Of a stretch of 64,000 nt of DNA, positions 2,125-42,955 are shown one piece after another (positions within the stretch are counted from its first letter, which is position 1; each line of letters starts with the position of its first letter). The position numbers were made by a program, and so were the translations under genes. The stretch is from Halichondria panicea (Eukaryota > Porifera > Demospongiae > Suberitida > Halichondriidae), in the NCBI RefSeq assembly GCF_963675165.1, contig NC_087377.1:4095899-4159898 (forward strand), written 5' to 3'. A model generated the notes under the pieces. The model searched no databases. It saw only the letters and a program-made list of their open reading frames with translations, and was not told the origin of the DNA.

Positions 2125-4841
2125 GTGCATGTACCCAGGTACTAAGTTCAAGTGTGTCCAGTTGAGAACTGAACTATATACTCCTATTTCGTTTTGAGTT
2201 TGTATATGCATAGCTTAGAGAATTAAATGCCATTGAGTGGAGTTTTGGAATTTACAGTACATTATATGCTTAACTTACTTCATCAGTATGTTTACCTTAC
2301 CGTCTGTACAAGTAGGTATAGTGGCATGTGCGATATCAAGAGTTCATTATAGGCATGCATGCATTCCTACTGATATACCTATATATAGCTATATACGTAC
2401 CTTTAAGTTTATACTCTTCTTTCCATTCAACCCCCATTGAGAAATCGCTTCCTATATATACGCCACCGGATCTATATACAAACTTTCTCGCTATTGATTT
2501 AGATGAACATGATGATATAATTATGATGATGACAGCAAGTTTATGATTATAGAATGTGCATACGTATATATAGGGTTCACTATAATTATACAGTCGTGAC
2601 AGTATTAGTATCTGAGAAGCAGAATACCGTCGCTATATAACTACTATTACTATAAGTTTTGTCATTACTTGCTTAAAATCATAATATGAGGGGGAGAACT
2701 TCCATCATGTTATACATCCATGGTAACAGTCTCAATGACCCATGGTCTCAAAGCCTTTTAGGTGTTCTGGTTTTGTGCATCAGTTAATGCACTTCGATTT
2801 TTCGTAACCAAAAAAAGTCATGCTTGAATATATAGCATTTTTGTGTGATTACTTTCACACATGCAGGTGCTAGAGATTCTGAAACAGTTTGTTTATGAAG
2901 AGAGTGATCATTGCATTCATTATTTTACCAGACATTCACTCGAGCAGTCAACATGTATGAACATGTGGGATGAATGCTGCTAATGATCGGAGCAATTGAT
3001 TGTGTGAGTTCACACACCCTATATATACTGTTTGATTCTCTGTTATCTGGCCGTCTTGTTTGGTTGTGTATATATAGGCGTATATTGGTTGTGATTGTAG
3101 GAGTTGTGCTGATTATTTTATACATGCACAATCAGTGCATGTAGCTGTAACACTGAGTTGCGACACTGAAATAAATGCAAGATTCTCCTAGAAGCTCGAA
3201 AACTCTTGGGCTGATTATGTTTATATTTCTACATGCATAGTAAGTAATCCATGTTGTATAAGTCAGTATAATTATTGAGCTCAATGATCCCTCATGCATT
3301 ATACCGTACTGATAGGGGTGGGTTAAATGTTGTCAAGTTTTATCCCATGATAACATGCATTTAACGATTCATGCATGCACATGGTGGTTTCAAAGAAAAG
3401 TCTTGTTTTGTGCATCAATGTAGTCATTTTGACTTTTCGTAACCAGAAACACTTCATTCAATGATAATTGAAACAAAACACACATCATATCGTTTTATGT
3501 TACTCAAAACAACTGACAGTGTAAAATGTATGCATGATGACATATACAGCTACAGCTATATTATTATATAGCTAAAAGTTCTTATGAGTTTGTATAATTA
3601 TAGCTAGATCTAGTTGAGTTCTAATGTTTCTAATGTAAGGATGAAAGTAAGTATTCAGTATAATAGCTGTACAGTCGTGATAAGTACATGCATGCTCGAA
3701 GCTGAATTCATGGCATGCACTTATAGCTTAATCCTTTAATCCATCATACCGTCGCTATAACTATACTAAGTCTTGCCATTGTATCTACCAATAATAATAT
3801 TATGAGGGGGGAAGAAATGCCATCAATCTATTCCATGCATGGTAGCAGTTATTTTACTCAATGACCCATGCTGCATGGTCTCAAAGCCGTTTACTTTTGT
3901 GCATCACATCTCTAAAATTGATGGTATACATGTACCAACTTCATTGGCGTAGGAAGATTTTTGCAAGGGGGGCTCAGATGAGGTAATCGGCTGGTTCACG
4001 AGACTAGCTAAACATTGCTCTCCATGCAACAAGGGGGGGGGGGGGCAGCCGGCTCCAGGTACGCCACTGCTAACTTATGGATCAGTGGGATCCTGGCTAT
4101 AGATAGATTATTGAAATTCACTATCAAACCTAGTAGTTTTCACTGTCCATAATTAATAGGCTAGGCTATGTACAGTAACAGGAGTGCATGATCCTGACAG
4201 TAACTATATTGAAAGCAGTCTATATAATTATAAAGACTCGGGTTGGTTGCCGTGTTGACTTGGTTATTATGTATCTATAAGTGCTATACATATATTATAC
4301 ATAATTATAGTGTATATTCTGGTTTCATGCTGCTGCATAATGGCTGTATTGTTCATAAAAGTTTGCAGTATAATTATTCCTCCTCTTCCTGTATAAACAA
4401 ACAACTTCAAAGGAGGGGGCGTGGAGCTCTTATCTATTAGCTCCCCTGGCCATGTGGCCACATGCACAGTGCATGCAGTACAGTGCAGTAGTACAGCTAG
4501 CTAGCTACTCACCAAGCTGTACTGTGAAGGTGAAGTACTGAGGTGTGATTTAAAGACGTCTGGGGGTAACTAAATAGAGCTAGAGCTACGCTGTTTTCTC
4601 CCTTCTGTGCTGTCCTCAACCCTGTGAGCTGAACTTTATTAAAAGATAAAATGGTGTGTCTCTATGATTATTAACAAACCTAGCTATAGCTAGCTATAAA
4701 AGTATAGCTTTACCTGTGTACATGTATATAGCTGTGTCTTATATCAGCCAAGCCCTTACACGTACTGGTAGGTACATGCAGTTGGCCAGCTTGGCTGATA
4801 ATTAATATCTAGCTAATCTATTGTTGTTTTGTTTGGTAGAA
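2125..4841. other. Intergenic region between the NIDO gene and the receptor gene
   Basis: No coding exon could be supported here. The sequence is AT-rich with many TGCATGCA palindromes. A diverged segment occurs twice, at about 2590-2830 and 3665-3925, sharing a CAGTCGTGA start, an ACCGTCGCTATA block, an ATTATGAGGGGGG block and GGTCTCAAAGCC. A third partial copy lies near 3385-3450. A G-run sits at about 4027-4037. The promoter of the receptor gene should lie in the last few hundred bases; no TATA box or named operator could be assigned. Confidence 0.6.
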
Positions 4842-5300
4842 ATGGGACTTTGGGTGTGGACTCTTGTTTTGAGGTAAGTCGCCGTGAGTCATATGGCTAT
4901 GTACATTACCATAATTACATCAATCACAGTGCCAGAAAAAGTAATTATTTTTGCGAGACTATAATTATATAGATGTGAGTGTACGTGTGAATCATTATGG
5001 TGCTATAAAAATAATTATGGGCCGAAAATTTGAATTTCGTATAATTAGAGTGGCGCTGTAATTACATCAATTACGGTTTTATACGCTTGAACCTTTCTGT
5101 CTCCAGATATAAAACTGGTTTCCTAGACAATCACTGCATTGTGTCCACCGTAATGTGAATACTTGATATACTTCATCTTGTTACAAATACTCCTGGGCCT
5201 GAAAGCGTTGGTGGTATAATCTGTTATTGCAATTGATCCCTCTGAAAATAACACTCTAGTTATTATGCCTCGGTGCGCATGCGCAAGCGAGGTATACGGT

Positions 5301-5344
<44 letters not shown>

Positions 5345-6420
5345 CTGCTACAGCTGCTCAAGGATGAATCAAGTGCAAGTAAGAGTTTCTATAGGCTTCT
5401 ATTCATGTTTACTTGGATTTTAATTCGTGGATTTGCAAATAATGCTTCGTTCTCGAGTTATGCCTAGTTTTGCTTACTTGGAATGCCATTGCAGCCTTTT
5501 CAGAAGAGCACGTAGCCAAACTTGTTTACCGAGTGTTGCTACTCTACTTAGTAGTTAACTCTGTACTAGAACGCTAGCTATTGGTAGCTGAAAGAGTGAG
5601 AAGAGAGCTGCAAGGCTCTGCTAATGCAGCCATTAATTTTAGACTTGAACTTTTGGCATCGATCGTTTTTAACAACAATCATGGTTGATCATTACCCACT
5701 CCTTGAGTTTGCATGCAGCAAAATTAATTGTTCAACATGTCATAGCTATTAGTAGCTTTATGTTATGTAGCTTTGGCATCTCCACCGAGGCATCAGCACC
5801 TGCGGTGCTTTCATTCATACAGCTTTTTTTGAAATTTAAAAGCAGAAATGCTAATTGACCTCAAGATGTAACAAACCCTATAGTGTGGGTCCACACTGAA
5901 TGCTAAGATTGTGTTGTGGTCCCACAAATGGAGCATCATAGTATGGTGTTGATCCCACAAGCTAAACCTCGTAGAGTAAGTCGCCGAACTCCGTCAGACA
6001 TCAAATTGCGTCAGGTAAAAGGGCGTGTAACGCACAAACAAAACAAGACTGATTCAAACTAATTACACACACTAACAGATGGCCATGGGCCTATTATCCA
6101 GCGAAAACTTGGATAGGCCAAGTTGCTTCCAGTCTGAGCAGTGATAACTTGAAAAAAACTACCGAATTTTTCGATTTTCGTCAGAACGTACCGATCCCCG
6201 TTTTTGCCAAACTACACAGCTAGAGCTAACTGATACAAGCTGAGTACAATCTAGATATAGTGCAGTACAGAGTGGAGCAATTCCCAGAATCAGGCGACCC
6301 TGCAAAGCGGAGCTACACTAGTTTCTTTGTGAGGGTTGTAAGTGCTGAGTCAGCAATATTCTAGCTATAAGCGCTAGTATATAGCGCCTATATATCAGTT
6401 AGCTCCAGCTGTGTAGTTTG

Positions 6421-6456
<36 letters not shown>

Positions 6457-7660
6457 CCTTCTCTTCGAGGGGACTATAGCCACACCCTCAAACAACCAGA
6501 ATATTGTGTGCGAGTCATTCTCCGGCATGGAGCACATCTACAGGAGGTGCTCAGTATGCACCGCAACTTTTAAGTGAGCAATCATCAAAAATTACCGTAT
6601 AGCGGGTATATTTCGAGGTTATAAATTTTTGCTGAAATGCGTTTAGTAGAAAGGTTTTCGCGGATTTAATTTTCGTGGAATAGCGCCTTTATGCATGCAT
6701 GCGATATTAAATTTGCCTAATCCGCGAAAACCACAAACATTTATACCCTCGAAATGTACCCGCTATACGGTATGTGTACACCAGAGAAAAATTATATGCT
6801 CAGCCTAGAGCCCAGAATTAAGAAAGGAGTATACTAGAGTCGGCTCTGTAATTAGAGTTCTGGTGGTCCATATTCATCGATGGTATGATTTCAAATCTCC
6901 AATTTGAATGGACCATGATTTCCCATTTTCGGAAAAATATCATGGGCCATGTGACGGGTATTTTGTCAAAAACAGGCCTAAAACGAACCTTTGATTTTAA
7001 CACATCATCTGATAATGTCTCTCTCTAAGCTAAATTTCTGAACAAAATTTCTGTGTGATTGAGCCAATGGAATTGGAACTAAAGTTATGGCTGTAAGTTC
7101 AAATAAGCTGTTTACTTAACGCTGCCTACAGTAAAGCATTTTGATCTACATAATTATTCGTGAGCAAATATCACAAGCTAGCCAAATGTTATCAAGGTGA
7201 ATCATGACATTACCTTGTGGTATATAGCATTACCATGAGGTGGGATTATGGTGTGTACATGTACATGTAGGTTGATGGAGTTGCATTACAGTCAGACAGT
7301 GGTAAACATCCACAGAGTTGACCTTTAATCAAGAGCAGATACTCTTGGTCTTATTTATTATAATACACAACTTTAGTACTGTGTTTTGAAATTTGCAAGG
7401 CATTACTTGTTGTATGCATGTATGCTTTCAAATTGATAAATGCTGACTTGTACTCCCGATGTGAGCCATGTCTACTGTCTATACTAAATTTCCTAGCAAT
7501 TAGTCGTGTTTCTGAGGACTCTGCTGTCTTTTAACCAACTATGCAGCTATATCCTTTATAACGTCTGTGTTTGCCCGAGGTCATTGATATTAATCCCAAC
7601 CAGTTTGTAATTAAGGTTCACCTCCTTATGTTATAATTATGAACACATATATACCTCCCA

Positions 7661-7711
<51 letters not shown>

Positions 7712-7747
7712 CACACACACACTCACACACACACTCACACACACACA

Positions 7748-7786
<39 letters not shown>

Positions 7787-10700
7787 CACACACACACAAC
7801 ACATGCACACACACACTACTATGCCTGGGTGCAACCACAATTAGAGGTTAATAATTGTTTTGTGCTTGCCACCACATAGACCCATCCCCATTATCAGATA
7901 CTACCACCACAAAACCACCTGGCCCAGACCAGAGGAGGTAGGACACTTTCACTAATTATGACCTTTTAATGACATTCTAGGCCAAATTGCTTTTCGTTTT
8001 TTGCTGACTCAGCAGTAGTGTCTACTGTACTTCTGCTAGTCTCATATTTCAGCCCCCTCTAAAAATTGGGCGGCCTAATGCAAGTCCAGTTTATAGAGGG
8101 CGACTGATTTTTGAGACAATGCTTATGCACGATTTCTGTTGCTAAATCTGTTGACAACTAGTTGTGTTTGGTGTCTGTGACAGTTACTTGGACCTAACCC
8201 ATACTAGCTAGATCCAGTCGTGTTCTACTGCTGAGTTAGCAAAAACGAAAAGCATTTGGCCTGGAATGTCATTAAAAGGTCATAATTAGTGAAAGTTCAA
8301 GTTATGTCCGACCTCCTCTGGGCCCAGACAATACAGCCTGTACCTATAAATTAAGCCTCCCTCAAATGTGAATATAGCTTACAATCAGCGTGGCCCCATG
8401 AAGTGAATAGCTTACAAGTATACTAGTTGTTCTGAATGCAACAGATGAATGGGGAGGGTTGGTGCACCGTTAAAGAGTCTTTAACCCATCATTCGCAAGG
8501 CTGCGAGCATCTGTTTGCTTTTTCTATACCTGTATGGTGTACAAATATATACAAATCTTGTCGTAAATACACTTAGCATCAGAATAATCTATCTTTAAGT
8601 GAGCATTCCGTTTTAGCTAGTATACGTTGCAGTCGACACAATTCCACCCACCTTTTATTTTTTATTTTTCAAATCTCAAACACACACACACACACGTACG
8701 CAGGCTTATACCCAATGTACTGTACACAAGCCCCCCCCCACACACACACAGGCTCATAGCCGGAGATAAGTACGAGCTGGACACCAAACGATGCCTGGAC
8801 TCCCCTCCAGCTGAAACCAACTGCACCACTGATTCTTGTTCATTGGACACATCCGGCAGCAATGTAGAGATCAGCTGCTGTTGCTCATCGTATCTATGCA
8901 ATGCTTATTCGGGGTTGACATTCAGTGATGTCACCAGAGTTAGCGAATACGGTGAGTCTGAAAATTGAGAAATGAGCGTATTTTTTATCTCCGTAAGTCT
9001 AGTTGGGATTATCTAATTTCAGTAATTATGCATTTTGTAGCTCCTATTGCTCTATCAAACGTAAAAATCAATAATTGCTCTCATATTTTTTATGAAATGA
9101 TAGCTTATGTGTACATACATGCACACATTTACAATCTAAACGTGCTGACCTTAATACACGTAGGTTCCACTTTCTGTTTGCCAACCATGAGGTTGGAAAT
9201 CCTCATGTATTATAACGTGTAGGTACTATTACCCCCCACAGTGCACATTACACCCTGTGATAGCAGTACTTGTACTATTACCCCCCACAGTGCACATTAC
9301 CCCCTGTGGTAACAGTACTTGTACTATTACCCCCCCCCACAGTGCACATTACCCCCTGTGATAGCAGTGCTTGTACTATTACCCCCCCACAGTGCACATT
9401 ACCCCCTATGATAGCAGTGCTTGTACAAACTCGTGCGTGTTGGTGGATGGCAGTCCGACATGCTTCTGTCAGGACGGATACGAACTAGAAGCAGACGGAG
9501 TCAGTTGCACGGGTAAATAAATCTCCAACTAATAATTATCTCCGTTCTCGGTTTACGACTAGTTTTGGAAACCATTGTGTGTAGCCAAATTTGAACTTTG
9601 CTTATAAAAGATGTCCTTTGTATGCTACGTAAATTGCAATACGACTTTACAATGTGCCCACACACACACACACACACACACCCACGCACACTAGATATTG
9701 ACGAGTGCAGGATGAATCCCTGCTCCCATGATTGCTGGAATACCATCGGTAGTTTTTACTGTACATGTCCGGTGGATTCTCGTATTATGGAGGACATGGT
9801 CACCTGTGACGGTAATGCCATGACCACACCCATTGTTCCTCTATGGGTGTAGTATGTATACAGCTACTCGTATAGTGGGTAATTTTCGCGAACTATACCC
9901 ATTTAAATTTCGTTTACAGCTCAGGGTAGTGACGTTGAGTCTATTGCCGTAGAATAATTTCGTAGTTTTAAAATTTTCGTATGATACTCTTGAATACAAA
10001 ATGTCCGAGAAAATTTCCACCATGCGAAAATAACCTGCTATATAGTTATACGGTAACTCTAATTTCTGTTGAAAATGTTCAATGTAGTGCGTACGTTTTT
10101 CAGATATCACTCTAATAATGGATGGAAGTTATTAGCCTTCATGCATGCGTATAGTAAAAAAATGTTATTTACCTTTTTTCTGGCAATGCCATATACACGT
10201 ATATCCTGATATCTAAACGCCCCCTTCCCCTGCATAGAACCTAGTCTGGTGTGTTTTTCTACTACTGAACCGTTGATGTTTCAGTATTGTAACGATGATC
10301 TAATGGCGACTGACAGTGATATTTCTGAGTGCAATGCAATATATCAGCTATTGGAAGATGGAACATTTGAACTAGAGGTAAAGCCAGCTATAACTACCGT
10401 ATAGCGGGTAATTTTTTGTGGGGCAACATTTTGTGCAGTTCATTGCTAATTGTCTATGTATAGACAAGAATTTCTCTGATTTCTCTGATTGTAGGCGCAA
10501 TACATGTACATGTACAGAGGTATAAATAACAGTCGGTCATCGGTCAATTTACAAGCAATTAGCCTATATTTGACCGACCATTTAGCTACTTGCTTCGGTC
10601 ATAGTGTCCTAGCAAAAGGCCAAAAGTCATAGTTATAATGCGAATGCGCACTAAAATAATGATCTCATAACAGCCATGTGCTTTGTTCATTGCACAAGAG

Positions 10701-13700
10701 GAGGCCTATAGATATTTATATAGCTATGTCAGCAGAGTGACAAGACGACTAGGTAAGCTTCTATTTTATGATCTAAGCATTACTTTACCTTCCATAAACC
10801 CTCCTTTTTTATAGAGATTACTAAAGACATTGCATGGGTAATTTAGTGTCCGATCAATATCACCTGATGGCAGAACAAAATGTATTATGCTAGGACAACT
10901 TGTCAGGACAATCCAGATGTGTTATTTATACCTTTGCATGTAGTTAACCCTTTAACCGCCACGGGCCACGATCGTGGCCCGCAATAGTGACTTTTTTTGC
11001 GAAATTCTAATTCTGCGATACTTAGGAAGTAGCTCGAACTACGCACATCCCTGTATAGAGGAAGAGCTGTAGAATCACGTGCAATTTAGTCTAGAAATTT
11101 CCAAGCCACGTTGCTATGTTAAAATTTCATTAGCATCTTACCGCACGAAGTTTATAGCTGTGGCTAGGTTGTTTACTTGTGCCGATGTGCTTGAACAGCT
11201 TGAGGACAGCAATGGCGATGTCTCCTCTGGTGATAACAGTGCCTATGAAGGAGAGGGGATAGTAGGATACCTCCCAAAGGCTACCAGCTTTATGCCAGAC
11301 GCTGATGAACTGTCTGGGACTGAGGACATGCATGACATGGACCTAGACGCTAGCACTATGGACCAAGACGGTGAAAGACCAGGAGAGGGCTCACTGTGTG
11401 ACTCTGGCAAGTAGTATAGTATAGCTAGAATATCAGTAGTGTAAGTATAGTATAGCTAAAATAGAATTAGCAGTAATGAACAGTCTTTATGTGAGCTTGT
11501 AAATTTCATAGATCGTTCACCGATATAGTAATACATGTACGTATTGTACTTCAAATTGATATATCTTAGCACTGTTACATTCATATAATGTGAAAATCAA
11601 GCTTAGTCAAGCCTTTATACCACAAGTGCAAAAAACATTTTGTGAAAAAATGGGTAAGAGTAGGGTTGGAAGAGCATGCGCACTGAAGTAACAAAAAGTT
11701 CGAAAACAAGATTGTGGGTTGGTATAGTCTTGCATGCTCCAACTAGTTGGGGGTGGGGTGCAATCTTTAACAGTTGGGTCCAGCACTACTTCTCGATCGT
11801 TACACCTCTTTCTTTATTTGAGACGCTCAATCACTTATTTTACCATTGCATGTGTTTCTACATAAGAATGAATGAGGCTTTTTCGAATTAACTTTTCTTT
11901 CTGCCACAGCACTGAAACACAAGTGTAAAATAATATTAAATTTGAGACTCTACAGATGAGCCCTGCCCACCAAAAACTCGAAGTAGTGCTGGACCCAACT
12001 GTTAAAGATTGCACCCCACCCCCAACTAGTTGGAGCATGCAAGACTATACCAACCCACAATCTTGTTTTCGAACTTTTTGTTACTTCAGTGCGCATGCTC
12101 TTCCAACCCTACTCTTCCCCATTTTTTCACAAAATGTTTTTTGCACTTGTTTGTAAACTTTTTTCACTGCATGTATTATTAATACATTTTATAAGTGGTC
12201 CTGGAAAACACGTACAATATTTTAAGTAATGACGTTTTGTAATCGGGGCGTTCCTTTTAGGGTTACCCATCATCTTGTTCAGGTCCGTTTGAGTGGCTCA
12301 TCCAACATGCAGCCGTACTTATCACTATTCTTTTTTTCACAAAAGTTTTTTACACTTGTTTGTACCTACACTTTTTTCTTCACAGGTACCAGCATAGATT
12401 TGTCTATGGTTGCTAGCTAGATCAAAATAATATCTTCAGTAGGTGGCAATCCACCTTTACTATGATAAAAGATCTAGCTAACTATACTGAATTTTTATTT
12501 GCACTGTTGCAGTTTGTGTCTGTCATGATAATTTTCATGAAGTTTTTTAACCACATGCACAAGCTCGGAGCCTCAGAATGAAGAGCTTCAAATGCTTCAA
12601 CGTACACAAGCATTAACTGGAGCGGTAAGGATCGACAGTACAAAACACTACTGTTGCTATGGACCTCAAGTGGTTGCTAAGATCAGAGGGGTGTGGCCAT
12701 GCTATCTGAGCATGCTCAGTAGGAAAACAATGGCGACCTCACCTCTGTACCTATTAAAGAGGGCGTAGCTTCCACCCTAGCAAATTTAACTTCGAGGTAA
12801 AATGATTAGTGACTGCACTACCCAAGGCGGCACAGAACAGTGCGGTGCCATTAGTTTGTCTTGTGGACTTACAGTTCTCTAGATTATCTGACTGAAGAAC
12901 GTGAGAGGAAGATGAAGAAAAAGTTGTTGTTTTTTTTGTTTTGCTGTTTTTATAACTTTTTCATACAATGTTCAATTCAGTTCATATTTCACACAAATGT
13001 CACAAATGATATGGGCAACAGATATATAAACTCAAAATAACTGTGTCTTGTGTCTTGGGTGAGATCCAGAGGGGGCCTTTTTGCTGTTTTCGACCCAACT
13101 CTACTATTAGCACTACCGTGCTAATGATATGATAGGCTGATCCATAAAAAAATTTTTTGGATTTTATCTCACCGCTGGCCGAGCATTTAAAATGATAAAA
13201 ACGGTTGAGCGTAATAACCATGGTTATTATGGCAACACATGTTGCACCATTTTATTCCTTGTTGTATGGGCATTCTATTGGTACATGGTTGCTAGGCATT
13301 TTATTGCTCTGGAAACCCGATAGAGAATTTACAGACATTTCACTTCACTGTTAATTAAGAATCCGATGGTTAAAGGGTTAAGCATGTCTGTTAGTGTCCA
13401 TAAACACAAGGGGATAGCATGTACTGTATTACTAGAATATTTTGCGAGTGAAAAACCTTTGCGAATGAGCCAAATCAGCAGAAAAGTTGACCCAATATTG
13501 CTAGCTGAACCACGAATATTTTGTCCCCCGAAAATTACCCGTTATACAGCTAGCTGGATGTTTTGCAAAGGACGAGACAGACAGGTGTCCTCCCACCACC
13601 AGTGAGCGGTGTGTGCTCGCTCAAGTGCCACAGACGACCAGATACCAATGTTGCTGTACACACTACTCTTGCAATGCAAAATTCAACATCGAATTTCCAA

Positions 13701-16449
13701 CTGTGAGCAACAGTACGGTTACTGTAGCACCAACCACCATCACCACTACCAACTCTACCACAGACGTGATTCCAAACACTACCCTCGAGCCACGCTTATC
13801 TACTCTTATCTTTGTCTTTGGACTGATAGTTGTCATGATATTTATCGGTATGTTGTTTGTAGTATGTCTGATAATCTACTGTCGTTTTTCTAAGAAGAGA
13901 AAAATATCGATTTGCGAAGTGTCTCGTATTACTAATAGCGAACCCATTGAGGCAAGTGACGCCCACAATATTAATCTTCGAAACGAGATTGGCAGGGGAC
14001 GGTTCGCTGTGGTACACTATGCTCAAATGAGAGGGAGTGACGTGGCCGTGAAGGTGAGTGTGTGTGTGTGTGTGTGTGTGTTGTGTGTGGGGGGAGTGAC
14101 GTGGCCGGGAGAGTGAGTGTGTGTGGGGGGGGAGTGTAGTCAGCTGTGTACACATAGATCATGTTCCTAATATCATAGTACCAGTAACGACCTCGTAAGC
14201 TGTTCAAAAATTAGTGTATGCCTCCTGGCGTTAACCTAAGGCATAATTATTATAACTAGTTGCTTTATTTCTCTCATGCATCTCACGCAGTGCTTCGATG
14301 TGAAGGAAAGTTTCACCAAAGAAGTCGCAATCTATCTCCTCAATCTGTTCCAGCATCCAAACGTTCTCAAGTTTCTAACATTCGTGGAAAACACGGAAGA
14401 GAACAACTACTGGATCGTGTTTGAGTATCATGAGAAGGGATCCTTGTACTCTCTTCTCCAACGCAAACCAGTCACCCTCAAAGAATTCTGTGCTCTGTCC
14501 GAGTCCATAGCTTGCGGTGAGATAATATGCATGTGCAGTATAATATACATGTTACTGTGTTTGTAGCCTCATACAAATTATTGTGTGTGCATTCGAAATA
14601 TCTCTATACTATACGATTGACTAAACTTTCCAAACTTAGACCAACTTCATCAGCTAAATTTTTTCTTTCTCTGATTCACAGTATTTGTCAAGTGTGCAGT
14701 GAACTATCATCCTAAACAGTCTCACGATGTAATAAACTGAGAGAACAGATTTGCATCATTTGGGTCCAAACTGCCACCATTTCATACATGTGTACTTTTT
14801 AGACATAACCATCACCAAGCTGCGTATCAGATAACCCTATATATGTATTTCCACGACCTGCACATGCAGGCCTGGCGTTCCTTCACAGTGAGTTCACTAT
14901 CGAAGGTGTTACCAAACCATGTGTGGCACATAGAGATCTCAAGTCTAAGAATATTCTGGTTAAATCCGACGGAAAATGTGCCATTTCTGACTTTGATCTG
15001 AGTATTCGGTTTCCTCTCTCAGAACAAGATGGTCACGGACAAGTGAGTAGGGGTGGGGCATAACTTCTCTACTGTATGTACTAGCAATATATATATATAT
15101 ATATAACAGTGTACATACATTTTCGCGTATTCCATAATTATTATATATAATGCTGATTATGCTTTTTGGGTATAGTGTACATTCTGACTGCGTCATCTCA
15201 TCAACGTATACCTTCTATGTACCCTCTGTAATACGACCTCCACAGTAAAACCATGTGTACATGTATGTGTGTCAGCTTGTCTGGGCAGAAGACTATAAGC
15301 CACTGTCGGTACTTGTATGGCAATGCCCAATGGTGACCTTTGTTTCATAATACCACGATTATATAACTCTCTGGCAGGTCGGTACTAATCGTTATATGGC
15401 TCCAGAGGTCTTGGAAGGTTGCATCACGTTCAACAGAGCAGCCTATAAGCAGATAGACTGCTACGCCGTTGGTTTAATCTTCTATGAGATAATGACCAGA
15501 ACAGAGTTGAATGGCGGTGAGTGTTACAAGTATGCAAGCATTTCTTTAGGTACTTATACTTCCATGCGTGCAAGAGTTGATGCATGTTCATACGTACATA
15601 AAATAACACTTTCTGTTAGCATCATGGGTCCAAGAATAATAATAATTATATATACATAAAGCCCCCCCCCCACACTCATGCACACGACATGTTACCTGCC
15701 ACAGAGGCTGTACCTGATTACCGACCCCCATTTGATGGAGAGGTGCCGGAACACCCCACCATAGAGGACATGCGCAATGTAGTGGCTGTGGGCGGTCACC
15801 GTCCCTCCTTTCCAGGCCGCTTCATCATCGATGGCGTGAGTTAATAATTATTTATAATTTAATTAAAACCTGAGACAAATCGTATCCTCCCTCACACACA
15901 CACACACCCTACCGCCCACACACACACACACCCTCCCACTACATACAGTCGTTTGACAGGTTGACGGAGATGATCACGGAACTGTTGGACACTTACCCTG
16001 AGGCCAGGATCACTGCTGAGGCCATCTCCAGAGGATTGACAAATTTCAGAATTTCAAAGTTTCCGGATGATAATGTCATCGATAGTGGCTATGAGAACGA
16101 GGTGTGTACAGTACATGTGCCCCTCCCCCTGGCTCCACCCAACTTTCATTATAACTGTATACCGTTGTTTGTTTGCGTTTGTAAATCAGCCTTAAAAATC
16201 AATAAGTGCTTCTGCAGTTACGTTGTACCAAACGATAACTACACGTATGTCTACTTAATGTGTAGTATACACACACCCTATCCCTCCACCCACTACACAC
16301 ACGCACACTCACAGATCCCTAGTACCCCTCATCAAGTATCCTCGTTGCCTCCCCGTCCCCCTTCACACTCAACCACCCCGGGGCCGGCTCATCCCTGCTT
16401 GGCTATAGCACTAGCTTACACTGGCAAAACAACAGAGACCACAGTCTAA
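4842..16449 (+). CDS. Type II TGF-beta/activin-like receptor Ser/Thr kinase with EGF modules
   Basis: Thirteen exons: 4842-4873, 6457-6573, 8752-8951, 9393-9512, 9695-9811, 10238-10377, 13550-14053, 14291-14516, 14870-15042, 15378-15516, 15705-15835, 15949-16101, 16315-16449. All phases match; the total is 2187 nt, or 728 residues. Signal peptide about 1-19, split by intron 1. Three-finger ectodomain 1 spans about 20-116 and ends CCCSSYLCN. EGF modules follow at about 117-156 and 157-195 (second starts DIDEC). Ectodomain 2 spans about 196-280 and ends CCCTHYSCN. A Thr-rich stalk leads to a membrane span at about 326-352. The kinase starts near 384: GRGRF loop, VAVK lysine 410, HRDLKSKN at 506, DFD (not DFG) at 526, MAPEV near 550. 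The spacing and motifs HEKGSL, HGQVGTNRYMAPEVLEG and EDM match ACVR2-type receptors. No type I GS box was seen. The C-terminus is ETTV, a class I PDZ-ligand pattern. Known for the family: it binds TGF-beta-superfamily ligands at the cell surface and phosphorylates type I receptors. Confidence 0.9.
5264..5812 (+). repeat. ~550-bp interspersed repeat, copy A, full length
   Basis: It begins TATGCCTCGGTGCGCATGCG, runs into a GT microsatellite at about 5303-5341 and ends near CACCGAGGCATCAGCACC. The same start, middle (TACTTAGTAGTTA, AGAACGCTAGCTA) and end recur at 21958, 22330 and, inverted, at 25733-26295. A partial middle occurs at 39650-39850 with a partial end at 37087. It lies in intron 1 of the receptor gene. 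No coding capacity was seen. Confidence 0.8.
6422..6456 (+). repeat. (AC)n microsatellite forming a 3' splice site
   Basis: An uninterrupted AC tract ends in ACAG directly in front of receptor exon 2, so it stands where a polypyrimidine tract would normally be. Confidence 0.8.
6592..6776. mobile_element. Foldback element with TACCGTATAGCGGGTA ends
   Basis: Both ends are inverted: TACCGTATAGCGGGTATATT at the left and TACCCGCTATACGGTA at the right. Inner blocks are also inverted (TTTTCGCGGATT versus AATCCGCGAAAA). It is a short non-coding palindromic element in receptor intron 2. Related ends occur at 9868-10056, about 10397, 13436-13549 and 34590-35065. Confidence 0.75.
7660..7818. repeat. 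Long (CA)n microsatellite
   Basis: About 150 bp of CA repeats with occasional ACTC interruptions in receptor intron 2. Any open frame through it is a repeat artefact. Confidence 0.95.
7930..8320. mobile_element. hAT-like MITE with 9-bp target duplication
   Basis: The terminal inverted repeats are CAGAGGAGGT at the left and ACCTCCTCTG at the right, and continue for about 100 bp (CACTAATTATGACCTTTTAA and its complement; TTGCTGACTCAGCAG and its complement). The 9-mer GGCCCAGAC directly flanks both ends (7921-7929 and 8321-8329). The CAGAGG/CCTCTG termini are hAT-like, although hAT usually duplicates 8 bp. It lies in receptor intron 2 and has no coding capacity. Confidence 0.85.
9223..9424 (+). 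repeat. ~50-bp minisatellite that copies a splice acceptor
   Basis: Four tandem copies of a unit of about 48-52 bp contain CCCCACAGTGCACATTAC, a stretch ending ATAGCAGT, then TTGTACTATTAC. The last copy supplies the 3' splice site (AG at 9391-9392) and first codons of the EGF1 exon. The upstream copies therefore each carry a decoy acceptor and exon start. Confidence 0.85.
9868..10056. mobile_element. Foldback element of the TATAGCGGGTA family, diverged
   Basis: The left end CGTATAGTGGGTAATTTTCG and the right end CGAAAATAACCTGCTATA, closing near TTATACGGTAA, are inverted relatives. It lies in the intron between the EGF2 exon and the second ectodomain exon. Confidence 0.65.
11160..11414 (+). 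pseudogene. Acidic reading frame, possible piggyBac transposase N-terminus
   Basis: An open stretch encodes CADVLEQLEDSNGDVSSGDN and then a long Asp/Glu/Ser-rich run ending CDSGK before a TAG. Acidic, low-complexity N-termini are common in piggyBac transposases, and the frame lies just inside the left end of the TTAA-flanked element. There is no ATG near the start of the open frame, and no catalytic DDD region follows, so it is treated as a remnant. The family call is inference from context. Confidence 0.4.
11622..12150. mobile_element. Foldback element nested in the piggyBac-like element
   Basis: The arms are about 150-170 bp. The left arm starts ACAAGTGCAAAAAACATTTT and contains GAGCATGCGCACTGAAGTAA and AACTAGTTGGGGGTGGGGTG. 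The right arm from about 11985 is the near-perfect reverse complement. The loop is about 200 bp. Part of the terminal sequence recurs near 12335-12370. No coding capacity was seen. Confidence 0.85.
13436..13549 (+). repeat. Right end of a TATAGCGGGTA-family repeat forming a splice acceptor
   Basis: CCGAAAATTACCCGTTATACAG matches the inverted end of the family (elsewhere TACCCGCTATACGGTA). The GG of the family end reads AG here, and this AG (13548-13549) is the acceptor of receptor exon 7. The matching left end lies at about 10397, just inside the donor of the same intron, so one repeat, later split by the piggyBac insertion, appears to span the intron. Confidence 0.6.
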
Positions 16450-17265: not shown

Positions 17266-18372
17266 TTATACCGTTGTTTGTTTGATTGTATGTGTTTGTA
17301 AATCAGACTCAAAAATCAGTAAAATGCTTAATTCTGCAGTTACGTTGTTACAGTACCAAACGATAACTACATGTACGTATGTCTACTTGTGTAGTATATA
17401 CACACCCTATCCCTCCACCCACTACACACACGCACACTCATCTCCGCCCACTACACACACACAGATCCCTAGTACCCCCTCATCAAGTATCCTCGTGGCC
17501 TCCCCGTCCCCCTTCACACTCAAGCACCCCGGGGCCGGCTCATCCCTGCTAGGCTATAGCACTAGCTACACTGGCAACACAACAGAGACCACAGTCTAAA
17601 CCCACCACCCACGATCTATCATCACACACCCTCACTGAGAACTAAATTCAATTGACTCTGACTCGATCCACAAATATGTTAATTTTAATGTAGCTATCAC
17701 AAGACCTTCTTCCCTCTCAAGCCCACAATCAAGCTACATTAATTTAGATTATTGTTGAAGATATATAATATTATCGCAAACTGCCACTTGTCAGATCAGT
17801 ACTTTAAAATATGCTGCATGTGTATGTGGTATAATTAAATTTAATGGTGTATAATTATGTATTATAGTGGATAAGATAAGCAATAAAATTTGACATACAA
17901 TGATTGACTTGAAAATAATATTGAAACACACACATAATTAGGGGGTGAGTGGGATAGCTAGTCTTAATTGTCCTTGGTGAGTACAGAGTAGCAACACTCG
18001 CACACTCGAACTTTGTCACTGCAGCCTATCTCCAGGAGTGGGAATCGTTCGGTAGTACACGTTCCACAGTAAATGCCCCCGCACTTGCGACAGTGATGCT
18101 GTGTGTGTGGGGGGGGAATTCTTACGTAACATGCATACATGCATATGTATATATACGTAGATACATGAACAAGGAAATATATTTTTTGGTATATAGGCAG
18201 ATACTAAATTCAGAGCACTACTCGGGAGGGTGGGGTCTATGAAATGAATTTGCTTATACTCTCCTGCGAATAGTGGTGAAGGACTTCTTGCAGGCCATGC
18301 ATTCTTTGGCTTCCTCGTCCGGTACCCAGCCATGCACGACGGGTACAGCCTATATGCTCTGCCCCACACGCC
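17266..18372. repeat. Tandem duplication, copy 2
   Basis: Second copy of the unit at 16150-17265, in the same orientation. It carries a second version of the receptor terminal exon (17465-17599) and the better preserved FYVE exons (17964-18427, minus). Confidence 0.85.
17465..17599 (+). CDS. Duplicated receptor terminal exon (possible alternative last exon)
   Basis: It has a 3' splice site after ACACACACAG, the same phase 0 and the same length (135 nt) as the first terminal exon. It encodes a Ser/Pro-rich tail ending TGNTTETTV. Relative to the copy at 16315-16449, the middle is read in a different frame (compensating indels), yet both end TTETTV and stop. It could be spliced in place of the first last exon, or be an unused duplicate; the sequence alone does not decide. 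Confidence 0.5.
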   Translation: MPSTPSSSILVASPSPFTLKHPGAGSSLLGYSTSYTGNTTETTV

Positions 18373-21957: not shown

Positions 21958-22329
21958 TATGCCTCGGTGCGCATGCGCAAGCGAGGTATACGGTAGTGTG
22001 TGTGTCTGTGTGTGTGGACTGCTACAGTTGACGATTTAATTTGTCGATTTGCAAAATAAGCTCGAGTTATGCCTAGTTTTGAGCGGAGTGCATAGCAAAT
22101 CTTGTTAATGGAGTGTTACTCCACTTAGTAGTTACTTAGCTCTGCACTAGAACGCTAGCTGCAAGAGTGAGAAAAGAGATGCAAGGCTCTACTGATGCAG
22201 CAGCCATTTAAGTTTAGACTTTGTACTTTTGGCATCCTTTTTAGCAATAATCATTCGATCATGTTCATTCATTATGAATAGCTGTTACGTATGTAAACTT
22301 TGCACATCCATCGAGTCATCATGCTTTCA
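21958..22329 (+). repeat. ~550-bp interspersed repeat, copy B, internally deleted
   Basis: It starts TATGCCTCGGTGCGCATGCG like copy A and keeps the middle blocks TACTTAGCTCTGCACTAGAA and GCAAGAGTGAGAAAAGAGAT. It ends at CATCGAGTCATCATGCTTTC, directly abutting copy C. Confidence 0.8.
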
Positions 22330-25482: not shown

Positions 25483-25732
25483 TTTTAATCAAGCTGTACG
25501 GCTTTTTGATACTCTTACCCCGACTAGATGCCAGAATGGTCTCAATTAATGCCATCGTCATCAATTACAGATGGATCTACATTAACTAGTGAAAGATAAT
25601 AATGAGCTGCCCACCTGCGTACCGTTTCGTTTCAGCATTAACACCACTTATGTCAGCTGCCCTTTTAGACGCATCAACTATACCGTCCCCCCACATCTTT
25701 ACTGCTATACTAATGAAAGCACCATAGGTGCT

Positions 25733-26295
25733 GATGCCTCGGTGGAGGTGCCAAAGCTACATAACATAAAACTACTAATAGCTAGCTTTTATACACACAT
25801 TGATTATAATTATCATGATGAATTTTGCTGCATGCAATCAACCGAATAGTGGGTAATGATCAACCATGATTGTTGTTAAAAACGATCGATGCCAAAAGTT
25901 CAAGTCTAAAATTACTGAATGGCTGCAAGTCAGCAGAGCTAGAGAGCCTTGCAGCTCTCTGCTCACTCTTGCAGCTACCAATAGCTAGCGTTCTAGTGCA
26001 GAGCTAACTACTAAGTAGAGTAGTAACACTTGGTGAACAAGTTTTGCTACAGACTCTTCTGAAAAGGCTGCAATAGCATTCCAAGTAAGCAAAACTAGGC
26101 ATAACTCGAGAACGAAGCATTATTTTGCAAATCCACGAATTAAAATCCAAGTAAACATGACTAGAAGCCTATAGAAACTCTTACTTGCACTTGATTCATC
26201 CTTGAGCAGCTGTAGCGGTCTACACACACACACACACACACAGACACACAAACACACTACCGTATACCTCGCTTGCGCATGCGCACCGAGGCATA
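25733..26295 (-). repeat. ~550-bp interspersed repeat, copy D, full length, inverted
   Basis: Reverse complement of copy A end to end: it starts TGCTGATGCCTCGGTGGAGG and ends TGCGCATGCGCACCGAGGCA, including the CA microsatellite at 26221-26241. It separates an open stretch at 25589-25730 (+, Cys/Tyr-rich, unrecognised) from a minus-strand open frame starting at about 26297. Confidence 0.85.
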
Positions 26296-26296
26296 A

Positions 26297-26486
26297 AAAC
26301 CTTGAGGGCAGTTGCCTTGTGAAGCTCAGGGCTTATGTTACGCTCAACGTAGTCCTCAATACTATCGCTGCCCTGGTCAAAAACGTCTGGGCACTGCTTG
26401 AGCATTTTCTGAAGGGTAGGCTGGCTATGTCCATGTGTATCTATTATTACAACCAAAAATGCTGTCCCCTCTTGGTCGCTTGACAT
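26297..26486 (-). CDS. Hypothetical protein fragment, cut by a repeat insertion
   Basis: The minus strand encodes EGTAFLVVIIDTHGHSQPTL, then QCPDVFDQGSDSIEDYVERN and ELHKATALK, a non-repetitive, protein-like composition. Open sequence continues upstream of the ATG at 26486 in the same frame (QIPLTQPRESKRQAEDNLRP). At the 3' side the frame runs straight into repeat copy D, which probably truncates it. I do not recognise the family. Confidence 0.4.
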
Positions 26487-29666: not shown

Positions 29667-29734
29667 TATGGCACGCCAAGTGTAACAAAAATAAATAGCG
29701 CTATAGGACGTCATAAAGTAAGGGAAAACGTCAT

Positions 29735-29800
29735 GCATGCAAGACGTGCTGTAATCGTTACAAGACGTGCTCTAACGTTACAAGACGTGCTGTAATCGAG
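29735..29800 (+). repeat. Short direct repeats ahead of the integrase gene
   Basis: CAAGACGTGCTGTAATCG occurs three times in about 65 bp (the middle copy is altered), 50-110 bp upstream of the ATG. The right arm has the same set. Such subterminal repeats could be transposase-binding sites or promoter elements (inference). Confidence 0.6.
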
Positions 29801-29845
29801 TGCGAGGCTCAAGGTCAAAAGGTGACTGGGTGTTCATTAATTAAA

Positions 29846-31541
29846 ATGGTTGATCAAAGAGCTGGAGCTGGAGATCGAGTGTGGGGATGGGAAACATTTC
29901 TCCAAGAAATGGAGACTTTCCTTACTACGGTAGATAGAGAAATCGATTATACTCAGTCTACTAGTTATGCCCAGTTCGTTATTGAGAGGTTTGAGGTTTG
30001 TATACATGCTCTATCTTCCCTTCGTGTACAAATTGAAGATGATGGCGATGATGAGACGATTGAAGTTTGCACGGCATTGAAGGAAATAATGGACAGTTGT
30101 GTGTTGCTCAAGACAATGTGGTACACTCGACTTGATGAGTTGGATGCACACACAGACGGAGGCTACCAAGTTCCCCAGGTTGCTAGGAGAGTAGGACGTG
30201 GCCGTCCCCAGCTATTTATTTGTCAAGACCAGTTGGAATACCTATGTAGTTTAAATTTCACTTGGACTGAGATTAGTAAACTATTGGGTGTCTCTCGAAT
30301 GACTATCTATAGAAGAAGAGGGGAGTTCGGCATTCTAGATGTTCATAGTGCTGCAAGAAGTATAAGTGACAGTGATCTACGTACAAAGCTCCAACAGGTG
30401 CGTCGAGAAATGCCAAATATGGGAGAGACACTGGTGATTGGGCGACTACGGTCATTGGGATATGCTGTCACTAGACAAAGGGTGCGTAATGCTATCCACG
30501 CAACCGATCCCCTGAATGCAGCTCTGAGATGGAGAGGAATCCTCACTGCTCGGCGCCCTTACTCTGTTCCCTCGCCCAACTCTCTATGGCACATGGGTAA
30601 GTCATATATAGGTGTTGTGTGACCAGGTTTATGGTTAATGTGTGTCAATTAAGTTTTAGATAAAGGAGCCCAGATGTGTGTACATGCATGTATATAGGTT
30701 GGAGCCTTATTATTATAGTAGTAGCAAGACTTGTGTATACAATACATGCATACTAATCATATCTTGTATTCGTACAGATGGCCACCACAAGCTTGTGAGA
30801 TGGGGCATGGTAACGCACGGGGCTATTGACGGATATAGCAGACTCGTCGTGTTTCTTCGCTGTAGCAATAATAACACTGCCGAAACAGTTTATAATCTCT
30901 TCCTTTCAGCTGTCCAACGGTTTGGACTACCGTCAAGAATGCGATCTGACTACGGTGGTGAAAATTATCGTGTAGCAGCACATATGCTAGAGAGTAGAGG
31001 ATATGACCGCAACAGCATGATAACTGGCAGTTCCGTGCACAACCAGCGGATTGAGCGCCTCTGGCGCGATATGCATCGTTGCGTAACAGTGATATTTTAC
31101 AAGTTATTCTATTACCTAGAGCAACATGGTTACTTGGATCCTGATAACATGTTTCATCGGTATTGTTTACAGTACGTCTATCTTCCACGTATCAACCAGT
31201 CACTGAAAGTATTTATGGAGGGTTGGAACTGTCATGGGGTTCGAACGGAACACAATCTAACACCACATCAATTATTTGTGCGGGGAGCACTTCAAATGCA
31301 GAGAAGAGGACTTCAAGCCCTAGACTTTTTCGAACATATTGATGAAATGTATGGTGTAGACGAAGAAATCAGTACGGGTGATGACGATTACACAGTTCGT
31401 ATACCCCCAATTGGTCTTGCATTGTCTGATGAGAATATGGCTTTGTTGAAGGAAAGAGTAAATCCTCTGGCAGACAGCGATAATTTTGGGATAGAACTGT
31501 ATGTTGAAACACTTACTTTTTTACGTACTTTGATTAACTGA
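29846..31541 (+). CDS. Integrase-like DDE transposase (retroviral-integrase fold), left copy
   Basis: Two exons, 29846-30596 and 30778-31541 (phase 1 junction, GTAAGT donor), give 504 residues. The ATG at 29846 was chosen because the codons upstream lack an ATG. A helix-turn-helix lies around residues 142-165 (TWTEISKLLGVSRMTIYRRR). The integrase core begins at the exon join: WHMDGHHKLVRWG supplies the first Asp, RSDYGGEN the second, and IERLWRD the Glu, spaced about 36 residues after the second Asp, a D,D-35E-like pattern. HNQRIERLWRD and YVYLPRIN are typical of a family widespread in cnidarian, sponge and fish genomes. No LTRs, protease or reverse transcriptase are adjacent, so it is not a retroviral provirus. 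The catalytic residues look intact. Confidence 0.85.
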
Positions 31542-31549
31542 GATTTGTT

Positions 31550-32482
31550 AATGAATGTGCAGTGCGTAATGCCAGTAATAATTACAAATTTATATCCAAG
31601 TTGAATGATGGTACAGTGCATGGAACCCCTCTATAACGGACACCTTTAATTGGAGAACAAAAAGTTTTGGCCGTTGTTAAGGGGTTGTTTTGTATGCAAA
31701 CTTTTGGGACCTGGGTGTCTGGCCGGTATGTCGCAGTTGGCCGTTAAGAGGGGTTCCACTGTATATAATTTTTATCATTTATGTTAATGAATGTCTGTCA
31801 GATGCAGGTACACATAATTATATAGACACACTATAAAGAGTATGACTAATATTATAGTAGTACTGCCAATACACAATGTTAGGACGTATATTATTATTAT
31901 ACTGGAATAGGTTGCAAGTACGTAGCCACTGTATATACACTTGGTAGATATTGTCATATAGTTTTACAGATGCTGTTTGTTAGTCTGAGTCAAATTTCTC
32001 ATTGGCTTGTGGCACCGTCTTCAATTATACCTGAATCCGGATAGAAAAACATTTGCAATGTGAAAAATTGCTACAATCCTATGTACAACCTACTGATTCA
32101 TATAGCATTTGAACGTGGAACATTTGTGGAACAATCATAATTATTACATGCATGCTTGCAACATGATAATCATAAGCTCATGCAGATAACTATATAATTA
32201 TATCTTCACTGTGACAAATGCAAGCACATGCATGTACTACTTGCATGCATGTATAGAAGGTCTTGCTAATTTTGCATTCATAAGTTATAGGTGTTATATA
32301 TAACAATTCTCCTGGGACCAAAGCTTGCATGCTTTTTATTGGACCTATATACCTACATCACTCAGTAATACAAAAATCACAGCGATGAATGCTTTACAAT
32401 ACAATAACATCGTCATAAAGGTAATAATTATGGCCAAAAAACATTGACAGACATGCATGCAGTGTTATCAATATTGCAAACG
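31550..32482. other. Convergent 3' spacer with a small TIR repeat
   Basis: Between the stop of the integrase gene and the end of the inverted HECT exon. 31621-31765 is a compact repeat with inverted ends GGAACCCCTCT and AGAGGGGTTCC, built around GGCCGTT blocks. Its mirror copy lies at about 56868-57003. No gene seen. Confidence 0.65.
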
Positions 32483-32756
32483 TCAATAGCTGTCCATTCT
32501 CCACAAGTACTCGCTTGACAAACAAGCTCGGAACTCAGAAACAAACACTTGGTATGAAGGGTATGTTGAGGATAGAATCAGGGATGGTGCACAGGTGAGG
32601 GCAATGGGTCTACGTGAAGAACCGGTAAGAGCATTAAATTCTAGAGATATTTTCGAAGAGGAACACACCGAGCTGCCAGTAACGAAGCGCAGAAAAGTTC
32701 GCAATTCATCCAGTCCCATATTTCCTATAAATTGACGCAGATAACCTAAAACCCTA
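32483..32756 (-). pseudogene. Isolated HECT-domain C-lobe exon (minus strand), copy 1
   Basis: The minus strand encodes LGYLRQFIGNMGLDELRTFL, RFVTGSSVCSSSKISLEF, then RRPIALTCAPSLIL (the TC holds the HECT catalytic Cys) and YPSYQVFVSEFRACLSSEYL before the stop. The frame is intact, unlike the plus-strand copy at 55797-56070. In front of it the minus strand has TGTGAATAG, a possible 3' splice site, so it looks like a last exon. No other HECT exon lies upstream on this strand within the window, so it is an exon without a gene here. Confidence 0.75.
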
Positions 32757-33249
32757 TTCACATGTATTTTACACATAGTTATGTGGAAGGTCTTGCTAAT
32801 TTGATATGCTATCATTATAATAGCTGTTTTATAACAATTCTGCCTTTATACACATGTATATATACCAACCAAAGCTCACATGCACAGTATTTTGATTTTA
32901 TAGGACCTACTGAGTGTTCTACGTAATTATATAACCAGCGTGCTGTCCACAAACTGTTCTCTTGCAGATGATATAAGGGGTTGTATGGGATAAATATGTA
33001 AGAGTGTATGGATTGGTAAGTGTATAAAAACATGATAGTGACGATCAAAACGGATGCAGTTAAATTGCAAATGGGTTGTTTTCCACAATAATTATCAACA
33101 ATTTGAACGAACACTGGACAGTCTTGATCAAGTTTCTAAAGGATGACGGCTGGCTTTTACCATCCACTCTTATCCAATTTGCTCTAATAGGAACAATTGT
33201 CGTGCAACAATATACATAACAAATTAAAAATTCCGATAATTAATAGTAT

Positions 33250-33467
33250 CAAGGGCGTATAAAAGAAGAGAGGGCATGCAACTCCACTATCAGTACACGT
33301 AGCTAGCAGAGTTCAAACGTGGGCGGAGGAATGTGTGCATTTGCATGCAGTGCTAAAAATAGAAATGTCTATTTTTAGTATTTCATGCACAGTCATGCAC
33401 ATTTATCCGCCCACGTTTGAATTCTGCTCTTGGAGTTGCATGCCCTCTCTTCTTTTATACGCCCTTG
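33250..33467. mobile_element. Foldback element, CAAGGG ends, 7-bp target duplication
   Basis: The arms start CAAGGGCGTATAAAAGAAGA and end TCTTCTTTTATACGCCCTTG, with inner arms around AAACGTGGGCGG/CCGCCCACGTTT. The flanking ATAGTAT is duplicated (33243-33249 and 33468-33474). It recurs at 44321-44538 within the large duplication. Confidence 0.9.
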
Positions 33468-33479
33468 ATAGTATTACGT

Positions 33480-42100: not shown

Positions 42101-42281
42101 TACATTGTACCAGTGTACATGCATGCATGATTATTATTGGAAAAGAGACAATTGTTGTGAGTTCATGATGGTAATAGTTGAAGATGCTGGTTGTGTTATA
42201 CGTACATAGGTTCACCGTAAGGGAGGTGTCTGCGTGCCGGATAAGTCTAATGGCCGGACAAGTCAGATGTGCTTTCTAAAG
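36194..42281 (+). CDS. UBX-HECT ubiquitin-ligase-like gene, copy 1, truncated at the gap
   Basis: Exons 36194-36568, 40157-40648, 40713-41009, 41150-41224, 41271-41381, 41620-41754, 41810-41971 and 42210-42281 are all phase 0, giving 573 residues. Exon 1 starts at ATG 36194 (an alternative ATG is at 36230). Exon 2 is basic. Exon 3 is a Ser/Thr-rich run of 19-residue repeats (IASTSQGTSSS). Exons 5-7 match the end of FAF/UBX-type proteins: AEQDRVYEEGLRIDQSKERK is the coiled-coil lead-in, then IYMRLPNGDRVGSTF and VLYEYVFAM form a UBX-like ubiquitin fold (about residues 465-545). The HECT exon should follow but falls beyond the N gap. UBX domains usually bind p97/VCP (family knowledge). Confidence 0.75.
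36650..36968. mobile_element. TIR element in UBX-HECT intron 1
   Basis: The ends GTAAGACCTTGATTTAAGGT and ACCTTAAATCGAGGTCTTAC are inverted; inner blocks (ATGCGACACC, GACCTC, AAAAGTAGCGAC) recur. A nested hairpin CCTCGATTCTAGGCC / GGCCTGAAATCGAGG lies at 36798-36851. A relative of the hairpin is at 20591-20632. Copy 2 lies at 47721-48039. Confidence 0.75.
37129..39203. repeat. Complex repeat block in UBX-HECT intron 1
   Basis: It is bounded by TTAACCCGAGGCCGAGCC and CCGAGGGTTAGCACTTCAGT. Inside, a segment of about 170 bp recurs roughly four times (about 37208, 37378, 38020, 38148), each with CTGCTCACCTGG, GCGTTTACAG, CACACAACAAGTT and AAAGCTTCGTTG. A foldback element is inserted at 38226-38678. 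Copy 2 lies at 48200-50274. Confidence 0.75.
38226..38678. mobile_element. Foldback element, CAAGAG ends, 7-bp target duplication
   Basis: The left starts CAAGAGTGCATAAGAAGAGA; the right ends TCTCTTCTTATGCACTCTTG. GTTTCAT is duplicated at 38219-38225 and 38679-38685. Inner arms contain GTGCACAAACACTGTGCACA. Copy 2 lies at 49297-49749. Confidence 0.9.
39485..39614. repeat. Hairpin element
   Basis: Inverted arms GTTATAGGCTGAGTCCAAGG / GGCCTATAAC and CTATGGGATTATGAGAC / GTCTCATAATCCCATAG. It is followed by a partial copy of the ~550-bp repeat (39650-39850). Copy 2 lies at 50556-50685. Confidence 0.75.
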
Positions 42282-42870: not shown

Positions 42871-42955
42871 CTAGGGATTTATGGCAGTAAACCACCGAGC
42901 ACGAGGGCGTAGCCCCGAGGGCGAGGTGTGGTTTACGTTGCCATAAATCCCTAGC
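42871..42955. repeat. Short hairpin in the intron before the HECT exon
   Basis: CTAGGGATTTATGGC and GCCATAAATCCCTAG are exact inverted ends about 55 bp apart, with GTAAACCAC/GTGGTTTAC inside. Copy 2 lies at 53942-54026. Confidence 0.75.

What the first reader, a model, noticed from the sequence alone, without database searches (positions are those of the whole stretch)
4842..14053. TGF-beta type II-like receptor with two ligand-binding folds separated by EGF modules
The joined exons give an ectodomain order of three-finger fold (ending CCCSSYLCN), EGF, calcium-binding EGF, three-finger fold (ending CCCTHYSCN), then one membrane span and the kinase. Canonical TGF-beta receptors have a single three-finger ectodomain and no EGF. 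The two folds are recognisably related to each other (CTATFKLIAGDKYEL versus CNAIYQLLEDGTFEL), so the ectodomain was duplicated and EGF exons with phase-1 borders were shuffled in between. I know of no described receptor with this layout. Exon phases sum to an exact open frame of 729 codons.
Basis: partly seen in the sequence, partly recalled or inferred. Interest (0 to 1): 0.88.

Follow-up and report, generated by a model that had tools for sequence, protein, structure and literature searches.

The report
Sponge TGF-beta type II receptor variant
A sponge gene encodes a TGF-beta-type cell-surface receptor with two ligand-binding modules held apart by a pair of EGF modules; close relatives carry three such modules, so this looks like a trimmed version of a sponge receptor design already in the databases, not a unique invention.

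Summary
Joined exons from 4842 on give a signal peptide, three-finger ligand-binding domain (LBD), EGF, calcium-binding EGF, LBD, one hydrophobic span and a kinase without a GS box, in one open frame with GT-AG introns. The layout is not new. The Halichondria panicea orthologue (P0001, 80% identical), an Ephydatia fluviatilis protein (P0029) and six relatives of unnamed origin have the same order plus one more LBD in front: LBD1-LBD2-EGF-EGF-LBD3-kinase. The window keeps LBD2 and LBD3; no LBD1 is found in the window, so this form most likely arose by loss, not duplication. A 2026 paper states that sponge type II ectodomain duplications were already described. The LBD2-LBD3 spacer is 98-104 residues in 8 of 8 relatives and 100 here. 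Likely mechanism: a type II receptor kinase whose membrane-proximal LBD3 binds ligand, with LBD2 on a fixed spacer as an added capture or tuning module. The two-LBD, EGF-spaced form is a new variant of a known kind. No RNA evidence from this species was available.

The parts
4842..4873 (+). exon 1, start of signal peptide (MGLWVWTLVL)
   Evidence: 9 of 10 residues identical to the H. panicea start; next best 10-mer in six frames of the window 6 of 10; tblastn alone gives E 6.0 because it is short; donor gtaagt
5259..5823 (.). dispersed repeat inside intron 1, the place where LBD1 exons would be expected
   Evidence: 88% identical, inverted, to 25704-26300; partial 74% match to 22077-22262
6457..6573 (+). 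exon 2, rest of signal peptide and first half of the distal LBD (= LBD2 of relatives)
   Evidence: acceptor cacag, phase 2 in and out; 63% to P0001 residues 116-158
8752..8951 (+). exon 3, second half of LBD2 (CCCSSYLCN)
   Evidence: 84% to P0001; followed by a TFSD-type linker also present after LBD2 in relatives
9232..9392 (+). three partial tandem copies of the acceptor and start of the EGF1 exon, first Cys codon kept
   Evidence: family D3; two of them hit (9241, 9342)
9393..9512 (+). exon 4, EGF1 (first Cys replaced by Tyr), phase 1-1
   Evidence: 87.5% to P0001
9695..9811 (+). exon 5, calcium-binding EGF2, phase 1-1
   Evidence: EGF_CA 39.5 bits (cut-off 27) when the EGF pair is scanned alone, 25.1 in the whole protein, where cEGF passes with 32.0 of 26.6
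10238..10377 (+). exon 6, first half of the proximal LBD (= LBD3 of relatives)
   Evidence: 61% to P0001
13550..14053 (+). exon 7, second half of LBD3 (CCCTHYSCN), hydrophobic span, kinase start with VAVK
   Evidence: 76% to P0001; start chosen from P0001
14291..14516 (+). exon 8, kinase
   Evidence: 93.5% to P0001
14870..15042 (+). exon 9, kinase catalytic loop HRDLKSKN and DFD
   Evidence: 95% to P0001
15378..15516 (+). exon 10, kinase APE region
   Evidence: 94% to P0001
15705..15835 (+). exon 11, kinase
   Evidence: 91% to P0001
15949..16101 (+). exon 12, kinase end and tail
   Evidence: 85% to P0001
   Evidence: 96-97% repeat of 17476-17638, spacing about 1150; homologous frame has a stop at its second codon
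17465..17599 (+). exon 13, tail ending TTETTV and stop
   Evidence: 93% to the P0001 C-terminus; frame and acceptor

Best explanation
It is a sponge TGF-beta-family type II receptor serine/threonine kinase. It is the orthologue of the H. panicea protein annotated activin receptor type-2B-like and belongs to a clade whose ectodomain is LBD1-LBD2-EGF-cbEGF-LBD3. In this genome LBD1 appears to have been lost, and exon 1 now joins the LBD2 exon at an acceptor 13 bases before the shared GTIATPS sequence. Shown: exon chain, order, kinship, no LBD1 in the window. Inferred: it acts as a type II receptor (binds a dimeric TGF-beta-family ligand, recruits and phosphorylates a GS-box type I receptor, and so activates Smads). 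LBD3, nearest the membrane, is the main ligand-contacting domain. The EGF pair is a fixed spacer that holds LBD2 away from it, so that LBD2 adds ligand capture (a second ligand, or the second type II site of the same dimer) or tunes signalling. The C-terminal TETTV is probably a PDZ anchor.
Against: No transcript or protein evidence from this species. Three changes could signal weakening: LBD1 loss, EGF1 Cys to Tyr, DFG to DFD (DxG in 7 of 7 relatives covering it). The ActRII contact triad (positions recalled: Y60, W78, F101) is T/L/S in LBD2 and N/F/Q in LBD3, so ligand binding in the ActRII manner is not supported by residues. Spacer constancy partly follows from EGF modules having similar lengths. 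The kinase group lies beside, not inside, the sampled type II clade. An assembly error at intron 1 is possible, since the window has a 10.9-kb duplication across an N gap elsewhere. P0001 comes from a genome contig and may be a predicted model. The fold models have mean pLDDT of only 62-63, and the window protein itself was not folded.
Confidence: 0.72

Rival explanations
1. The locus is a decaying or specialised copy: a pseudokinase or ligand sink that binds ligand without signalling, tolerated because another type II receptor does the work.
For: DFG reads DFD, EGF1 lost a cysteine, LBD1 is missing, the last exon is duplicated with one broken copy; the first three are intact in H. panicea. 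A synthetic human two-LBD TGFBR2 bound more ligand with limited Smad activation (PMC13187141 Discussion).
Against: The frame is open through 13 exons, kinase 257/275 identical with catalytic Lys, HRD and the DFD aspartate kept. EGF1 is also cysteine-poor in E. fluviatilis, so that loss is tolerated. The own-genome search for a second copy did not complete.
Confidence: 0.17
2. LBD1 is present in the animal but missing from this assembly (collapsed or wrong haplotype), so the receptor is the ordinary three-LBD sponge form.
For: 8 of 8 relatives have an LBD1 box; the assembly has a 99.99% duplicate around an N gap in the same window; intron 1 is repeat-rich.
Against: No N in 3500-15400; exon 1 and the 6457 acceptor join in phase, while an acceptor at the GTIATPS border, entered in the phase of exon 1, runs into TAG (read by eye and the phases).
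Confidence: 0.15
3. Two genes: a secreted or membrane LBD-EGF protein and a separate single-LBD receptor starting near 10238.
For: None found beyond the long intron 10378-13549.
Against: H. panicea and E. fluviatilis proteins and four unnamed relatives with a complete kinase carry all domains in one chain; phases fit across every junction.
Confidence: 0.03

Closest known systems
Halichondria panicea activin receptor type-2B-like (P0001)
   Same: Orthologue, 80% identical; LBD2-EGF-cbEGF-LBD3-TM-kinase, same signal-peptide start and TTETTV end
   Different: Has an extra N-terminal LBD1, the first Cys of EGF1 and DFG in the kinase
Ephydatia fluviatilis receptor serine/threonine kinase (P0029, 974 aa); probably from the sponge receptor cDNAs of Suga 1999 (link recalled, paper not readable here)
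   Same: Same domain order and LTETTV end
   Different: Three LBDs; EGF1 cysteine-poor; kinase 43% identical to that of P0001
Vertebrate LBD-multiplied receptors (ACVR1, BMPR2, TGFBR2; PMC13187141)
   Same: More than one LBD ahead of one kinase; individual LBDs were lost again in herring-like fish
   Different: TGFBR2 LBDs joined by linkers mostly shorter than 24 residues; no EGF modules mentioned in the sections and passages I read; separate origins by that paper
ActRIIA/ActRIIB
   Same: ACVR2A is the best PDB kinase match; LBD2 of relative P0146 models like ActRII ectodomains
   Different: One LBD, no EGF; contact triad not kept in the window

Membership tests
[quoted passage not shown]
   the best 34 of 60 listed PDB rows are activin, BMP or TGF-beta receptors, then a drop from 154 to 58 bits; tree
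TGF-beta family type II receptor kinase | no GS box before the kinase | tested here: met
   no PF08515 match at E up to 1; juxtamembrane stretch has no SGSG
TGF-beta family type II receptor kinase | three-finger ectodomain with CC..CN box | tested here: met
   hhalign 96.3% and 97.0% to single-LBD receptors, 10 shuffled controls at most 4.0%; fold match on relative P0146, not on the window protein; Pfam misses it
TGF-beta family type II receptor kinase | one membrane span | tested here: inconclusive
   one long hydrophobic helix in the AF2 models of relatives P0001 and P0146, aligned to the window; no membrane predictor was run
TGF-beta family type II receptor kinase | kinase branches inside the type II clade | tested here: inconclusive
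   sponge group (90/94) lies beside, not inside, the sampled type II clade (85/87) and apart from type I (100/100); unrooted, 27 rows
TGF-beta family type II receptor kinase | phosphorylates a type I receptor on ligand binding | not testable with these tools
   needs biochemistry
canonical single-LBD receptor architecture | one LBD and no EGF | tested here: not met
   two LBDs and two EGF modules
ActRIIA/B proper | hydrophobic ligand-contact triad (positions recalled) | tested here: not met
   LBD2 T/L/S, LBD3 N/F/Q
sponge multi-LBD EGF receptor clade | LBD2-EGF-cbEGF-LBD3 with 98-104 residue spacer | tested here: met
   100 residues; relatives
sponge multi-LBD EGF receptor clade | kinase orthology | tested here: met
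   257/275 with P0001; joint branch 100/100
sponge multi-LBD EGF receptor clade | three LBDs | tested here: not met
   no LBD1 in the window; hence filed as a variant; the rest of the genome was not searched
sponge multi-LBD EGF receptor clade | C-terminal (S/T)ET(T/S)V | tested here: met
   TTETTV with exon 17465-17599; 6 of 6 relatives with a complete C-terminus, 2 of 8 being cut short

The most novel reading that the evidence does not exclude
Sponge type II receptors are bispecific single-chain receptors: LBD2 keeps an activin-receptor-like fold and LBD3 a BMPR2/TGFBR2-like fold, and the length-locked EGF pair is a ruler that lets one chain grip both type II sites of one ligand dimer or two ligands at once. 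This genome shows that the distal LBD1 is dispensable, so domain number is tuned by loss as well as gain.
Probability: 0.12. Interest if true: 0.72.

Novelty: new variant of a known kind. Interest (0 to 1): 0.42.

Why it matters
TGF-beta receptors are usually described as single-LBD proteins conserved across animals. Sponges keep a second, EGF-spaced blueprint, with three LBDs in the relatives and two here; Pfam's activin-receptor model matched none of these LBDs in the nine multi-LBD proteins scanned, so it is easily overlooked. The conserved spacer makes a testable hypothesis about how more than one LBD is used, and the window offers a natural LBD1-less form beside a close three-LBD orthologue.

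Full report
What the sequence holds. The window lies in a 131-Mb, 39-contig genome; that it is a sponge close to Halichondria is inferred from the match below. With the exon that ends at 14053 starting at 13550 and the last exon at 17465-17599, thirteen exons with GT-AG introns give a 728-residue protein in one frame. The order is signal peptide (by eye), LBD (10 cysteines, CCCSSYLCN), EGF, calcium-binding EGF, LBD (10 cysteines, CCCTHYSCN), hydrophobic span, kinase, tail ending TTETTV.

The last exon. The H. panicea C-terminus matches 17462-17596 at 93% in frame, while the matching frame at 16317 has a stop at its second codon.

Relatives. A search with its kinase region found the same kind of protein from E. 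fluviatilis (P0029) and three unnamed sources (P0025, P0026, P0027); 2300 proteins passed, 120 were listed, and 5 of those 120 carry EGF-type Pfam domains, all five of this group. A search with their alignment added P0143 and two partial ones, P0144 and P0146. In 8 of 8 there are three LBD boxes with the cbEGF between the second and third; EGF1 lies before the cbEGF in each. Six have a complete kinase and C-terminus; P0144 is cut inside the kinase and P0146 lacks the kinase. Only two of the eight have an organism name; that the rest are sponges is inferred from kinship. The calcareous sponge Sycon protein P0132 has one LBD box and no EGF family match.

Loss of LBD1. The LBD1 of H. panicea finds only the LBD2 and LBD3 exons in the window at E below 0.1; the next match, E 0.15 at 4401-4487, lies upstream of exon 1. 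Intron 1 has no N and contains a 565-base dispersed repeat. Exon 1 itself is kept: 9 of 10 residues match, against 6 of 10 for the next best place in the window, though tblastn alone rates so short a match E 6.0. Since 8 of 8 relatives have LBD1, loss here is the simplest reading. PMC13187141 (section 6 read) reports later loss of individual LBDs in herrings, anchovies and shads, a precedent.

Kinase. Best PDB match of the kinase from exon 8 on is ACVR2A, 180.8 bits. In a 27-row tree the window joins P0001 (100/100) in a sponge group (90/94) beside the sampled type II receptors. Catalytic Lys, HRD and the DFD aspartate are present; the DFG glycine is Asp here and Gly in 7 of 7 relatives that cover it.

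Spacer. From the LBD2 box to the first Cys of LBD3 there are 98-104 residues in 8 of 8 relatives and 100 here, a spread of 1.7% against 5.5-20% for the five other segments measured (one of the five on 7 proteins). EGF modules have naturally narrow lengths, so this is suggestive, not proof of a ruler. PMC13187141 predicts that at least 36 linker residues are needed for one chain to hold both sites of one TGF-beta dimer (passages).

How it likely works. Inference: a type II receptor with its main ligand contact in LBD3 and an accessory LBD2. The ActRII contact positions (recalled) are largely not kept; the W78 position is Phe in LBD3 of the window and in LBD3 of 6 of 8 relatives. Among the LBD1 and LBD2 rows none has Phe or Trp there; one (P0146 LBD1, misplaced by the script and corrected by eye) has Tyr; P0144 LBD1 is cut and was left out. 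LBD2 is better conserved than LBD3 between window and H. panicea (63/77 against 61/88), which suggests that the distal LBD is under constraint; between other relatives the ranking varies.

Literature. PMC13187141 (abstract, sections 6 and 10, passages) reports 12 vertebrate LBD multiplications and says sponge and oyster duplications had been described, citing Suga 1999 (not held) and Herpin 2005 (seen only as a citation). PMC5684314 (passages and section 6) calls most glass-sponge receptors typical in domain composition. PMC3169577 and PMC2657120 contain no word beginning with EGF, and the one in PMC8235796 concerns LRP5/6; of these three I saw passages only.

Verdict. A true gene and a correct reading of its domains; an orthologue of a sponge receptor type already in databases, most likely reduced from three LBDs to two. 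The claim of an undescribed layout does not hold.

Noticed in passing
32573-43443 and 43644-54514: 10,871-base direct duplication, 99.99% identical, on either side of a 200-N gap (43444-43643); looks like a false duplication in the assembly.
   Followed up: partly
29667-32473 and 56152-58958: 2.8-kb inverted pair, 99.9% identical, whose first copy holds an integrase core ORF (PF24764, 258 bits) and a helix-turn-helix ORF: probably a recent transposable element.
   Followed up: partly
1-2000: Upstream exons on the same strand with a calcium-binding EGF module (180-302) and a nidogen-like (NIDO) match (1158-1700, 27.5 bits of 25).
   Followed up: partly
11622-11792 and 11980-12150: 171-base inverted repeat, 99.4% identical, inside the 10378-13549 intron.
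   Followed up: no
9232-9392: Three partial tandem copies of the EGF1 exon start keep the Cys codon where the exon itself has Tyr.
   Followed up: partly
17599 and P0001, P0025, P0026, P0027, P0029, P0143: The six relatives with a complete end, and the window, finish in (S/T)ET(T/S)V, which looks like a conserved PDZ-binding motif.
   Followed up: no
P0029 EGF1: EGF1 of E. fluviatilis is also cysteine-poor, so the first EGF seems to tolerate disulfide loss.
   Followed up: no
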